DNA of 64,000 bases from Terriglobales bacterium. GTDB lineage: Bacteria; Acidobacteriota; Terriglobia; Terriglobales; Acidobacteriaceae. This document shows, piece by piece, positions 34,400 through 42,248 of this stretch (position 1 is its first letter; every line of letters begins with the position of its first letter). The stretch spans positions 186,001 through 250,000 of the forward strand of contig JAICSO010000001.1 in NCBI GenBank assembly GCA_025936825.1, in the 5' to 3' direction. A program made the position numbers and the translations under genes. The notes beneath the pieces were generated by a model that was not told the DNA's origin, ran no database searches, and saw nothing but the letters and a program-made list of their open reading frames with translations.

Positions 34400-34410
34400 G
34401 GATTATGTGG

Positions 34411-34430
34411 CGCGGGCGCCTTCGCCCGCG
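34411..34430 (+). repeat. Perfect hairpin
   Basis: CGCGGGCG/CGCCCGCG with a 4-nt loop, 12 bp after the gvpL/F stop and just ahead of the main terminator. Confidence 0.6.
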
Positions 34431-34443
34431 AGGGTTGTGTGAG

Positions 34444-34474
34444 GGTCGGACATTCGTGTCCGACCTTTTGTTTT
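34444..34474 (+). terminator. Rho-independent terminator built from a dispersed palindrome
   Basis: Perfect 9-bp stem GGTCGGACA/TGTCCGACC, TTCG loop, followed by TTTTGTTTT. The same palindrome recurs at 42226-42248 without a full T-run and, diverged, within uvrD at 38475-38498. Confidence 0.85.
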
Positions 34475-37793: not shown

Positions 37794-38138
37794 GAATCCT
37801 TTTCTTGATTTGGTAATTGGGAAAATTTGTAATTTGGTAATTTGAAAACCGAACGCGTCCGAGCGCTGTGCCAGAAAACCAGCGGCTGGAAGGCAAAGGC
37901 TTCTTAAATTACCAAATCACCCACTTACAAAATTAACAGATTTCCTCGTGCCGTCCGCATTCGACTCGCTACACTCGCTCAGGGCAGGCTCTACGGGACT
38001 TGGTCGCGTTTATCTTCTACCCAGGGCTTACGCCCTGGGCTAAGTTGTACCGCTCCTCCGGAGCTGGGACCGATCTGCTGGCGGGTGCTTCGCACCAGCA
38101 GAACCAGAACCGAACAACCGAAAGCTAAGAGCCAACAG
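37794..38138. other. Gene-free stretch of stacked palindromes
   Basis: From left to right: an AT-rich inverted word repeat (GATTTGGTAATT at 37808-37819, complement at 37907-37918); a CCCAGGGC/GCCCTGGG hairpin (38020-38039); a GCTCC/GGAGC hairpin (38052-38064); an imperfect CTGCTGG...CCAGCAG hairpin (38075-38102); and AGCTAAGAGCC words (38125-38150) running up to the uvrD stop. No gene. Confidence 0.7.
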
Positions 38139-40886
38139 CTAAGAGCCGACTCTCTCCAGCTGCGCATACTTCTCCACCAGCTTTTTCAGGCCGAAGCGAG
38201 GGAATTGTACCGTAATCTTGGCCTCCTCGCCGTCACCTTCGCGCTGGTAAACCGTGCCCTCGCCGTATTTCGGATGACGTACCTTCTGTCCTGGACGAAA
38301 GCCGCGCTTCCCCTTCGGCTCCTCGACCTGCACTTTGGGCAGGCTGAATTTCTTCCCTCGCGACGCGAAGAACTCGGCAATGTTGTCGATGGAGTTGTAT
38401 CTGGGGGCCTTAGTCGCTTGTGGCTGCTGCTCCTTCCACGACGCCGACTGATCTTCGTCCTCATAGTTGTAGTGGGGTTCGGACATTCCTGGCCGACCAG
38501 AGCGCGAGTCACTCCACGCGGGGGTGCCCCACTTCTCCCCGTTTTTAGGAGAAGTGGGGAAAGCATTCCTCTGGGCGCGAGATCTTCTCGTCGTGCCCAT
38601 CTCCTCCATCAACTCTGCCGGGACCTCTTCCAGAAACCGTGAGGGCACGCTCGCTTCTGGCATGTCAGTTCCATAGCGGCGGCGATAGACGGCACGTGTG
38701 ATGATCAGTTGATCCATGGCTCGCGTCATGCCGACGTAGCAGAGGCGCCGCTCTTCCTCGATGTCATCAGGATTGAGGAATGTTCGCGAGTGCGGGAAAA
38801 GCCCTTCTTCCAGCCCGCATAGAAACACCAGCGGAAACTCGAGTCCCTTTGCCGCATGCAGCGTCATCAAAGTGATCTGGGCGCGTTCGTCGTAAGCATC
38901 GGCGTCGCTGACCAGCGCCGCATGGTCGAGAAATTGATCGAGCGTTTCACCGCGGTCTTTGGAGTCCATTGCGGCGTTCACCAGTTCGCGGATGTTTTCC
39001 ACGCGCGAGTAGGCCTCTGGGGAATCCTCTTCTTCCAATATCTTGATATATCCGGTGCGGTCGATCAGGAACTTGAGAATCTCGGCGGTATTGGCGGCAT
39101 CTCCAGGAGCGCGAAAGCCTTCGACCGGCGCATCGGTCTTCTCATCGGCTTCGCTACCATCCGAAGAGCCTCCGGCCAGATCGGCAGGATCGAATGCTGC
39201 CTCCTCGCTACTCTGGTCTGAACCATCAGCCTGCACTGAGCTCTCCGCACGGATTTCGTGGTGCCCGCCAAAATCGAAAGCTGAGGGATCGAAGTCCGTT
39301 TCATCTTCGGGCGCAGCGTCGTCTTGCGCGCGCGAGGGCGCCCGTGCCTCCACGTCATCGCGTAACGACAGCCGCCCTCGGCTGTCCTGCGGAGGATCAC
39401 TCCGCTCCTCCGCACTCTCCGTTAACCTCTCCGCATAAGTTCCCGCCGCCATCGCCCGCGCATCTTCGATCAGATCGCGAAACGATTTCAATGCCTGCAG
39501 GGCCCGGCCCGGCAAAAGATTTCGCTGAATGGCCTCGCCCATCGCTCCCCACAACGACAGCCCAGTTTCCAGCGCCAACCGCTCCACAACTTCCATCGTG
39601 GTCTTGCCAATCCCGCGTGGAGGCGTATTAATCACGCGCATCAGCGAAACCGAGTCATCCGGATTGTGAATGACCTTCAAATACGAAATCAGATCTTTGA
39701 TTTCCGCTCGCTCGTAAAACGAAAATCCGCCCACCACGTGATACTTCAGCTGATACCGACGCATTGCCTCTTCAAACAGTCGCGACTGCGAGTTCGTGCG
39801 ATACAGCACCGCCGCCTTGGGATCTTCGCCGCGTTCCGTTGCCTCGCGGACGTACTTGGCAATCGAGTCAGCCGCGAATAGGGCCTCATTCTCGCCATCC
39901 GGCGCTTCATAAAAACCGACTTTCGTGCCGCCCTGGCGAGAGGTCCAAAGATTCTTTCCTTTGCGGCGCACGTTGTTTGCCACCACCGCAGAGGCGGCCT
40001 GCAGAATGTTCTGCGTAGAGCGGTAGTTCTGTTCCAGGCGAACGATCTTCGCTTCAGGGAAGTCTTGCTCGAACTCAAGAATGTTGCGGATGTCTGCCCC
40101 GCGCCAAGAATAGATCGACTGATCTTCATCGCCAACGGCGCACACGTTGTGGCGATCCCCGGCCAGCAGTCGCATCAGTTCGTACTGCGGCCGGTTGGTG
40201 TCCTGATATTCGTCCACCAGGATGTATTGAAACTTGCGGTTGTAGTACTCGCGAACGTGCGCCGCCGATTTCAGCAGCCGCACAGCTTCGAGCAGCAGGT
40301 CATCAAAATCGAGAGCGTTCGCCTTGCGCAGTTCTTTCTTGTACTCCTCGTAGATGTGCGCGATGCGCTCGGTCTTCGGATCCGCCGAGTTGAGATAGAC
40401 CTCCTGCGGATCGAGCATGTGGTTCTTCGCCCACGAAATGTGCGATAGCACCGCCCGCGGCGTGAGTTCCTTGTCGTCGATTCCCAGCCGCTTCATGATC
40501 GACTTCGTCACCTGCTGCTGGTCGGTTTCGTCGTAGATGACAAAGCTCTTGGTGTGTCCGATCGGCGGCTGCCCAGGCAGGGACGACGGAATGCGCAGAG
40601 CCTCGATGTCCCGCCGCAGCATGCGCACGCAAAATGAGTGAAAAGTCGATATCACCGGTTTCGCAATCGTCGAGCCACCAACAATCTTCTCGACGCGCTC
40701 GGCCATCTCGGCGGCAGCTTTGTTGGTGAACGTGACCGCCAGAATCGACTCCGGCATCGCCCCAATGTGCTCGACCAAATAAGCAATGCGGTAGGTGATC
40801 ACGCGCGTCTTGCCGCTCCCTGCGCCGGCAAGGATCAACACTGGCCCGTCGACGGTCTCGACCGCCTCGCGCTGCTGCGGATTCAA
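38139..40886 (-). CDS. uvrD: UvrD/PcrA-type superfamily 1 DNA helicase
   Basis: 915 residues, 3'-5' helicase for nucleotide-excision and mismatch repair. Motifs: Q-motif LNPQQREAV at the start, Walker A GAGSGKT, motif Ia AVTFTNKAA, motif II VDEYQDTN, QNYRSTQNI, VHTLHAAKGLE-like LMTLHAAKGLE and YVGMTRA. An acidic low-complexity insertion (~500-600) and a C-terminal linker are unusual; the linker encodes two dispersed DNA palindromes. The C-terminal Tudor-like tail (GQKVRHPKYGEGTVY) contacts RNA polymerase in PcrA. The annotated TTG at 40886 cuts the family N-terminus; a CTG at 40904 with GGAGCGG upstream would give MSFLSQLNPQQ. Confidence 0.95.
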   Translation of the reverse strand: MNPQQREAVETVDGPVLILAGAGSGKTRVITYRIAYLVEHIGAMPESILAVTFTNKAAAEMAERVEKIVGGSTIAKPVISTFHSFCVRMLRRDIEALRIPSSLPGQPPIGHTKSFVIYDETDQQQVTKSIMKRLGIDDKELTPRAVLSHISWAKNHMLDPQEVYLNSADPKTERIAHIYEEYKKELRKANALDFDDLLLEAVRLLKSAAHVREYYNRKFQYILVDEYQDTNRPQYELMRLLAGDRHNVCAVGDEDQSIYSWRGADIRNILEFEQDFPEAKIVRLEQNYRSTQNILQAASAVVANNVRRKGKNLWTSRQGGTKVGFYEAPDGENEALFAADSIAKYVREATERGEDPKAAVLYRTNSQSRLFEEAMRRYQLKYHVVGGFSFYERAEIKDLISYLKVIHNPDDSVSLMRVINTPPRGIGKTTMEVVERLALETGLSLWGAMGEAIQRNLLPGRALQALKSFRDLIEDARAMAAGTYAERLTESAEERSDPPQDSRGRLSLRDDVEARAPSRAQDDAAPEDETDFDPSAFDFGGHHEIRAESSVQADGSDQSSEEAAFDPADLAGGSSDGSEADEKTDAPVEGFRAPGDAANTAEILKFLIDRTGYIKILEEEDSPEAYSRVENIRELVNAAMDSKDRGETLDQFLDHAALVSDADAYDERAQITLMTLHAAKGLEFPLVFLCGLEEGLFPHSRTFLNPDDIEEERRLCYVGMTRAMDQLIITRAVYRRRYGTDMPEASVPSRFLEEVPAELMEEMGTTRRSRAQRNAFPTSPKNGEKWGTPAWSDSRSGRPGMSEPHYNYEDEDQSASWKEQQPQATKAPRYNSIDNIAEFFASRGKKFSLPKVQVEEPKGKRGFRPGQKVRHPKYGEGTVYQREGDGEEAKITVQFPRFGLKKLVEKYAQLERVGS
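38475..38559. repeat. Two dispersed palindromes inside the uvrD coding region
   Basis: 38527-38538 (CCCCACTTCTCC) and 38548-38559 are a perfect 12-bp inverted pair with a 9-nt loop. 38475-38498 (GGTTCGGACATTCC, then TGGCCGACC) is a diverged copy of the GGTCGGACA palindrome seen at 34444 and 42226. Both lie in frame in the linker before the C-terminal Tudor-like domain and are translated as Gly/Pro/Ser/Lys-rich sequence. Confidence 0.8.
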
Positions 40887-42225: not shown

Positions 42226-42248
42226 GGTCGGACATTCGTGTCCAACCT
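42226..42248. repeat. Dispersed GGTCGGACA palindrome, diverged copy
   Basis: GGTCGGACATTCGTGTCC followed by AACC; one mismatch from the perfect copy at 34444-34465. It lies between two convergent genes. Confidence 0.7.

What the first reader, a model, noticed from the sequence alone, without database searches (positions are those of the whole stretch)
38475..38559. Dispersed palindromes translated inside the uvrD linker
A perfect 12-bp inverted pair (CCCCACTTCTCC) and a diverged GGTCGGACA palindrome, the latter also present at 34444 and 42226 in intergenic DNA, sit in frame just before the Tudor-like tail. This suggests that intergenic palindromes can insert into coding DNA where a flexible linker tolerates it.
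Basis: seen in the sequence. Interest (0 to 1): 0.58.

Follow-up and report, generated by a model that had tools for sequence, protein, structure and literature searches.

The report
Mobile palindromes translated inside UvrD helicase
Short repeated DNA hairpins, probably spread by a transposase, sit inside genes of this acidobacterium and are read as protein in floppy parts of the repair helicase UvrD, and about a quarter of the related UvrD linkers examined carry similar hairpins.

Summary
uvrD (38139-40886, minus) carries a perfect 12-bp inverted pair (element B, 38522-38562) and a decayed copy of a dispersed palindrome (element A, 38469-38498), both in frame, in a predicted disordered linker (residues 766-860) before the Tudor-like tail. 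A is REP-type: GTGG/GTAG tag, short GC stem, 4-nt loop. GGTCGGACATTC occurs 32 times in this genome, reversed control 0. In relatives, 24 of 101 UvrD linkers carry a tetraloop palindrome. Tagged forward copies share one codon phase (14 of 14), reverse copies nearly so (11 of 12), while stem types differ. REPs also lie in frame in RecG, NrdJ, SelA, LeuRS, ValRS and MnmE. The kind is known: Di Nocera 2013 reported intragenic REPs, including UvrD/REP helicase genes. Apparently new: the phylum, the breadth at one linker, and stem exchange at a fixed phase, the last inferred. B is a separate repeat family of unknown mechanism.

The parts
38139..40886 (-). uvrD/pcrA-type helicase gene, 915 aa
   Evidence: PcrA model 829.5 bits, under its 911.2 cut-off; PDB 1pjr E 1.5e-180
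38469..38498 (+). element A, decayed REP-type copy: tag-like GTAGTGGGG, then TTCGGACA-TTCC-TGGCCGA (one stem mismatch); read on the minus strand as SGRPGMSEPH
38522..38562 (-). element B, hairpin with 12-bp arms 38527-38538 and 38548-38559; read as AFPTSPKNGEKWGT; its exact arms are in 1 of 101 UvrD linkers
39362..39386 (+). REP of the ACAGCCG type (GTAAC tag remnant, then GACAGCCG-CCCT-CGGCTGTC) in the 2B-domain insert; same stem type as the REPs that flank a RAYT gene at G000:C97
39326..39353 (-). decayed partner REP GTGGAG-GCACGGGCG-CCCT-CGCGCGCGC in the 2B insert, its tag facing that of the neighbour
   Evidence: sequence; compared with intact copies
34444..34465 (+). intergenic copy of element A, perfect stem, loop TTCG
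42226..42247 (+). intergenic copy of element A preceded by GTGTG, one stem mismatch
34405..34430 (+). intergenic REP of another stem type: ATGTGG, then CGCGGGCG-CCTT-CGCCCGCG

Best explanation
Element A and the 2B-insert pair are REP-type elements (GTGG/GTAG tag, often GTGTGG; 7-9 bp stem; 4-nt loop) of an acidobacterial REP population, probably spread as non-autonomous DNA by RAYT (HUH tyrosine) transposases. Most copies lie between genes or at gene edges; some lie in genes, and copies that keep the frame and fall in a disordered segment survive and are translated. In UvrD two disordered segments take them: the 2B insert and the linker to the Tudor-like tail. The linker has two long-lived REP positions, one in each orientation, each in a fixed codon phase, and in different lineages the stem and loop have been exchanged for other REP types. 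B is a different, less abundant palindromic repeat that is in the linker only in this species. Shown: dispersal, tag and stem anatomy, in-frame placement, predicted disorder, recurrence across relatives, shared phase, different stems at aligned codons, a RAYT gene flanked by one REP type. Inferred: mobilisation by RAYT, survival by tolerance, age of the sites, and exchange by re-insertion or gene conversion.
For: Dispersal: 32 vs 0 control; four stem types counted in 30 chosen genomes, reversed controls 0-3 per genome. Perfect stems of 8 bp or more with a loop of exactly 4: 44 vs 10.4 expected in 464 kb. UvrD: 20 of 46 linkers vs 1.4 expected under codon shuffle, N-terminal conserved part 1 of 21 vs 4.6, tail 3 of 49 vs 3.5; 24 of 101 linkers, 23 of the 26 palindromes with a loose GT-tag match beside the stem. 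Phase with the stricter tag: forward 14 of 14, reverse 11 of 12. Fourteen aligned reverse-site segments: 90.2% of cells paired, 16 cells changed on both sides vs 4.9 in shuffles (0 of 500), covariation score 0.353 vs at most 0.172 when slid. Intact A in the UvrD linker of same-genus G007. G005 and G006, same genus, have 1 and 0 A stems and no loop-4 palindrome in the linker. Disorder. RAYT open frame with HVH, flanked by GTGTAG-CGACAGCCG REPs on both sides. REP-bearing extra segments in RecG, SelA, NrdJ; A copies in LeuRS, ValRS, MnmE and ABC-F genes that score over NCBIfam cut-offs.
Against: No RAYT flanked by A among the 7 PF01797 loci looked at; the nearest A copy is about 1.6 kb from one. 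No empty site in uvrD. The loop-4 criterion was chosen after a first scan that allowed any loop up to 24 nt, in which only 6 of 94 linkers reached 1 or fewer of 100 shuffles (about 2 expected). Conserved C region 6 of 17 vs 2.1; other loop lengths are raised too: linker 51 vs 7.5, 2B insert 23 vs 3.5, N-terminal part 52 vs 30.5. In the genome sample, loop 7 is also raised, 16 vs 8.4. Two covariation measures do not stand out: pairs with double change 4 vs 1.9 (29 of 500 shuffles) and further pair types 5 vs 5.6 (470 of 500), and the tool says these two are the ones least inflated by relatedness. UvrD stem type tracks the genome's own REP types only weakly: exact one-sided p 3/84 over 9 chosen genomes, and G003 has as large a share of A as G000 and G007 but no A in uvrD. 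My gene caller is rough; of 10 tagged palindromes it put in genes, one (near 87616 of the joined sample) probably precedes the true start and one (near 226776) is probably a chance hairpin.
Confidence: 0.75

Rival explanations
1. The linker hairpins are vertically inherited and kept as structures: the stem changes by compensatory mutation because the DNA or mRNA hairpin is itself useful, for example to slow translation between the helicase core and the tail.
For: Fixed codon phase in both orientations; more double-sided stem changes than in shuffles by two measures.
Against: 72 of 101 rows have no REP that I recognised in the linker, and presence/absence needs at least 16 changes on a quick tree with 36 open forks; several copies are decayed; the double change is in essence one block, GGGCG/CGCCC to GGACA/TGTCC, at two pairs in 6 of 14 rows, and both stems are dispersed types in these genomes.
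Confidence: 0.15
2. Each lineage acquired its linker REP by independent insertion at a preferred target in the uvrD coding sequence, with no long-lived site.
For: Different stem types at the same place; at least 16 changes on the tree; cleavage sites of TnpAREP are set partly by the GTAG motif (PMC8266576, part 1 of the discussion).
Against: The four species of the window's genus that group together (L058, L059, L060, L061) all carry the reverse copy at aligned codons although the stem type differs, which fits one old site better.
Confidence: 0.3
3. The palindromes are chance products of GC-rich, repetitive linker codons.
For: Linker codons are rich in Arg, Ala, Gly and Pro; the first, loop-free scan gave only a small excess (6 of 94).
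Against: Codon-shuffled linkers give 1.4 of 46 against 20 observed; the uvrD copy of A scores 21 against at most 12 in Markov sequences; tags recur beside the stems.
Confidence: 0.03

Closest known systems
GTAG-tagged REP elements and REPtrons (Di Nocera 2013 PMC3733652; TnpAREP survey PMC6006769)
   Same: GTAG/GTGG tag directly 5' of a short GC stem, small loop, dispersed singles and inverted dimers, one stem type flanking a RAYT gene; intragenic copies in replication and repair genes including UvrD/REP helicase genes; recB hit at about the same site in two Xanthomonas species (PMC3733652 section 15).
   Different: Host is an acidobacterium; in PMC3733652 the word occurs once in the text, for TIR-flanked transposases (figures and supplements not seen), and PMC6006769 gives Acidobacteria class 3 enzymes with atypical structures. 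One uvrD linker is occupied by different stem types over many genera.
Rickettsia palindromic elements (RPE)
   Same: Palindromes read in frame inside genes of known function (PMC3733652 passages).
   Different: RPEs end with CGTC, and CGTC repeats are not tied to transposase genes (PMC3733652); the elements here have a GTGG/GTAG tag.
REPINs / BIMEs
   Same: Inverted pairs: the A pair in the G007 uvrD linker, the pair in the window's 2B insert, an A pair in LeuRS.
   Different: REPINs are described mainly as intergenic (recalled; only the start of the abstract of PMC3116915 was seen).

Membership tests
GTAG/GTGG-tagged REP (definition in PMC6006769 section 38) | GTAG or GTGG 0-2 nt 5' of the stem | tested here: met
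   Of 30 own-genome loci of A, 25 have GTGG (22) or GTAG (3) directly before GTCGGACA; 14 read GTGTGG. Other types: GTAG-GGACAGCCG, GTGTAG-CGACAGCCG. The window's uvrD copy has only a tag-like GTAGTGGGG.
GTAG/GTGG-tagged REP (definition in PMC6006769 section 38) | fully paired stem of 7-20 bp, loop of 2-5 nt | tested here: met
   Intact A: 8-9 bp, loop TTCN. The uvrD copy in the window has one stem mismatch, so it is a decayed member; L002, L005, L014 have a longer loop and L015, L029 no second arm.
GTAG/GTGG-tagged REP (definition in PMC6006769 section 38) | at least one copy within 1000 nt of a tnpAREP (RAYT) gene | tested here: inconclusive
   Met for the ACAGCCG type: REPs about 70 and 157 bp from the PF01797 match G000:C97:140889-141185. 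Not found for A: nearest about 1.6 kb.
GTAG/GTGG-tagged REP | many dispersed copies, singles and dimers | tested here: met
   In G000 29 A stems and 12, 18, 19 of three other types; a dimer at G000:C96:17205-17269.
element B as a GTAG-tagged REP | unpaired GTAG/GTGG tag next to the stem | tested here: not met
   B copies end in GTGGGGCACC, where the GTGGG is part of the paired arm; B is not filed as a REP.
Rickettsia palindromic element / CGTC repeats | CGTC at one end | tested here: not met
   The tag is GTGG/GTAG in the copies aligned.
RAYT-mobilised element | cleavage and strand transfer by the cognate transposase | not testable with these tools
   needs biochemistry

The most novel reading that the evidence does not exclude
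The UvrD linker is a standing docking site for REPs in coding DNA: an old inverted pair keeps its position, orientation and codon phase over many genera while its stem and loop are repeatedly overwritten by REP types active in each genome, so mobile DNA rewrites a helicase linker in place without breaking it.
Probability: 0.3. Interest if true: 0.7.

Novelty: new member of a known kind. Interest (0 to 1): 0.5.

Why it matters
It shows that dispersed hairpin repeats feed new peptide into repair, replication and translation proteins in another phylum, and gives a natural series of UvrD linkers (29 of 101 that I labelled as carrying a REP) in which insertion, decay and stem exchange can be dated and the effect on UvrD tested. 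It also warns annotators: linker peptides such as RVGTGALARPAGRSP in these bacteria look like translated repeats.

Tried and rejected
Chance hairpins: rejected by codon-shuffle and Markov controls, though the first scan without a loop rule was weak. A general rule that REPs enter genes in one codon phase only: rejected, because A copies in other genes use several phases (VGRTFLSD, GSDILVRQ, LSDKNVRPT). A clean tie between UvrD stem type and the genome's REP repertoire: only weak. A precise empty site for B or A in uvrD: not found; close pairs differ by decay or length. One A-in-gene call, L029, is a chance half-site. Literature: eight paper searches; read: PMC3733652 sections 15, 16 and part 1 of 17 plus found passages, PMC6006769 section 38 plus found passages, PMC8266576 outline and part 1 of its discussion; all other papers were seen only in search listings. 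No paper on REPs inside acidobacterial genes turned up in these searches.
Full report
Observation. They lie in the open frame of a UvrD/PcrA-type helicase gene, 38139-40886 minus. The uvrD copy of A scores 21 against at most 12 in six Markov sequences. The genome has 6.54 Mb in 141 contigs. That it is an acidobacterium of the order Terriglobales is my reading from named relatives: the contig of same-genus G007 has the length of one from an Acidobacteriaceae MAG, RYN_4, and the nearest named loci are titled Acidobacteria, Acidobacteriales or Terriglobia.

Two repeat families. Of 30 own-genome loci of GGTCGGACATTC looked at (of 32 places), 25 have GTGG or GTAG directly before GTCGGACA and 14 read GTGTGG. 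Most have the second arm TGTCCGAC after a 4-nt loop; L002, L005 and L014 have a long loop, and L015 and L029 no second arm. The full stem GTCGGACATTCNTGTCCGAC is in 6 of 120 family genomes: 21 in the window's, 33 in G007, one each in four others. With the loop left free, six of eight genus genomes have 6 to 50 copies; G005 and G006 have 1 and 0. Element B, about 41 bp, has 7 exact places in the genome and occurs in 9 of the 29 other genomes tested, reversed control 0. It has no unpaired tag and is kept apart. Its exact arms are in 1 of 101 UvrD linkers, the window's; decayed copies would be missed.

A second site in the same gene. The 2B-domain insert (residues 476-598, against 8 residues in PcrA 1pjr) holds GACAGCCG-CCCT-CGGCTGTC at 39367-39386 and a decayed GTGGAG-GCACGGGCG-CCCT-CGCGCGCGC at 39326-39353, tags facing each other. 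PMC3733652 says that HH dimers predominate (table in section 17); I did not check which end it calls the head.

These are REPs. In 464 kb of this genome perfect stems of 8 bp or more with a loop of exactly 4 number 44 against 10.4 expected; loops of 3, 5, 6, 8, 9 and 10 give 9, 8, 9, 5, 6, 14 against 9.0, 7.4, 5.4, 8.8, 8.4, 10.4, and loop 7 is raised, 16 against 8.4. Only 13 of the 44 have all-pyrimidine or all-purine loops, so other families are mixed in. The REP definition in PMC6006769 section 38 is met for tag, stem and loop by intact copies. Its last criterion, a copy within 1 kb of a RAYT gene, is met for the ACAGCCG type: the PF01797 match at G000:C97:140889-141185 has GTGTAG-tagged CGACAGCCG REPs on both sides, and its 180-residue open frame holds MPDHVHLI and ANPVRAGL (that these are RAYT motifs is recalled). 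For A it is not met in the loci seen. Two other PF01797 loci, one of them in two frames and so perhaps broken, are flanked on both sides by different palindromes (CCCGGGGC..., CCCAGGAC...), like the TIR-flanked transposases that PMC3733652 section 16 reports for Acidobacteria.

The UvrD linker in relatives. A first scan for the best hairpin of any loop up to 24 nt found 6 of 94 linkers at 1 or fewer of 100 codon shuffles, about 2 expected. Its top hits suggested the 4-nt loop, which one search then tested on other DNA. In 50 distinct UvrD genes of acidobacterial relatives, tetraloop palindromes (stem 7 or more, at most one mismatch) occur in 20 of 46 readable linkers (1.4 expected under codon shuffle), 3 of 12 2B inserts (0.8), 6 of 17 conserved C regions (2.1), 1 of 21 N-terminal parts (4.6) and 3 of 49 tails (3.5); palindromes with loops 3 and 5-8 are also raised in the linker (51 vs 7.5), the 2B insert (23 vs 3.5) and the N-terminal part (52 vs 30.5). 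These linkers overlap those, so the test is not independent. Over 101 distinct linkers 24 carry a tetraloop palindrome, and 23 of the 26 palindromes have a loose GT-tag match beside the stem. With a stricter tag, forward copies start in the same codon phase in 14 of 14 and reverse copies in 11 of 12 (L172, the exception, and L182 look like chance). Forward copies mostly read RVG..., reverse ones ...PH. Stem types differ: GGACGGGCG, GGCGCGCG, CACACGCG, CGCGGGCG, CGCGGACA, TCGGACA and others. Within the window's genus, G003 and G001 have GGCGGGCG-type stems where the window species and G007 have the A type at the aligned codons. G007 also keeps an intact forward A copy.

Covariation and tree. 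On 14 aligned reverse-site segments, 90.2% of cells pair (79.0 in shuffles), 16 cells change on both sides (4.9; 0 of 500), and the covariation score is 0.353 (0.154; 0 of 500; at most 0.172 when slid). But pairs with a double change are 4 (1.9; 29 of 500) and further pair types 5 (5.6; 470 of 500), and those two are the measures least inflated by relatedness. The signal is in essence one block, GGGCG/CGCCC against GGACA/TGTCC, which is what exchange of whole REPs would give. On a quick tree of 101 UvrD rows, with REP labels set by hand (15 forward, 11 reverse, 3 both, 72 none), presence changes at least 16 times; 36 of 98 inner branches are open.

Does the stem follow the genome's own REPs? 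Counts of four stem types in 30 chosen genomes give only weak support: P1-type (GCGGACA) and P2-type (GCGGGCG) linkers differ in the expected direction with exact one-sided p 3/84 over nine genomes, and G003 does not fit for A. G098 keeps a REP in uvrD although its genome holds 0, 0, 0 and 3 of the four stems, the three with loops unlike REPs.

Other genes. In the same 464 kb, tagged REPs lie in frame in RecG (two), SelA, NrdJ (three) and an FAD-binding oxidoreductase-like protein (two). Against PDB homologues, RecG has 60 residues where T. maritima RecG has 4, SelA about 38 extra residues, and NrdJ 75 against 44 at one of its sites. A copies of this genome also lie in LeuRS (an inverted pair), ValRS, MnmE and an ABC-F gene, all above NCBIfam cut-offs, and in a LolCE-like gene just below its cut-off; in G007 one lies in an RlmI-like gene below cut-off. 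In LeuRS the pair falls in a stretch of low similarity to 1h3n that is only somewhat longer, so it is not shown there as a pure insertion. By my rough coding score, of 48 distinct A places 27 are intergenic, 11 at gene edges and 10 in genes; two of the 10 are in the same LeuRS gene and one (L029) is a chance half-site. Of 17 tagged palindromes in the 464-kb sample 10 fell in predicted genes, which cover 83% of the DNA, so REPs are thinner in genes than outside but not rare there; at least two of the ten are doubtful.

Mechanism. A UvrD model from 27 homologues (mean pLDDT 72.6, pTM 0.51) has pLDDT near 30 in residues 497-591 and 766-860 and mostly 60-96 elsewhere. All four palindromes fall in these two stretches. 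The likely course is insertion of REP DNA by a RAYT acting on single-stranded hairpins (PMC8266576, part 1 of the discussion), loss of copies that break a frame or a fold, and survival of those in disordered stretches. The constant phase with different stems in the linker suggests that old sites are overwritten by later REPs, by re-insertion or by gene conversion between copies; this last step is inference.

Known or new. PMC3733652 already reports REPs inside genes of DNA synthesis and repair, including UvrD/REP helicase genes, suggests that flexible linkers tolerate them, and notes different REPs at about the same site in recB of two Xanthomonas species. So the kind is known. The acidobacterial host, the breadth of occupancy of one uvrD linker and the stem exchange at a fixed phase were not found in eight paper searches; figures and supplements were not seen.

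Noticed in passing
window 38020-38039: Palindrome CCCAGGGC-TTAC-GCCCTGGG just downstream of uvrD, similar to those that flank other PF01797 loci in this genome (compare G000:C140:950662-951004).
   Followed up: partly
L002, L005, L014 around 1501: Variant of element A with a long loop (about CCTTCGGCTTCGCTCAGGGCA) between the arms; in L002 and L005 it lies in a predicted gene.
   Followed up: partly
L237:7749-10127 (RecG), L237:11043-12566 (SelA), L246:438-3515 (NrdJ): In-frame REP-bearing extra segments: in RecG just before VMTATPIPRT, in SelA, and three REPs in the B12-dependent ribonucleotide reductase.
   Followed up: yes
L019 (G000:C96:17205-17269): Inverted pair of element A read in frame in a leucyl-tRNA synthetase gene.
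   Followed up: partly
L176, L113, L265, L276 linkers: A second hairpin, like GCGGGGCGAAGCCCCGC, follows the forward REP and is read as AGRSP; possibly part of a longer composite element.
   Followed up: no
G098 uvrD linker (L162): REP in uvrD although the four REP stem types tested are almost absent from that genome (0, 0, 0, 3).
   Followed up: no
L271 against L177 linkers: L271 has 18 extra bases that repeat part of the hairpin GGTGTGGCACACGCGCCC in tandem, a possible small duplication or re-insertion.
   Followed up: no
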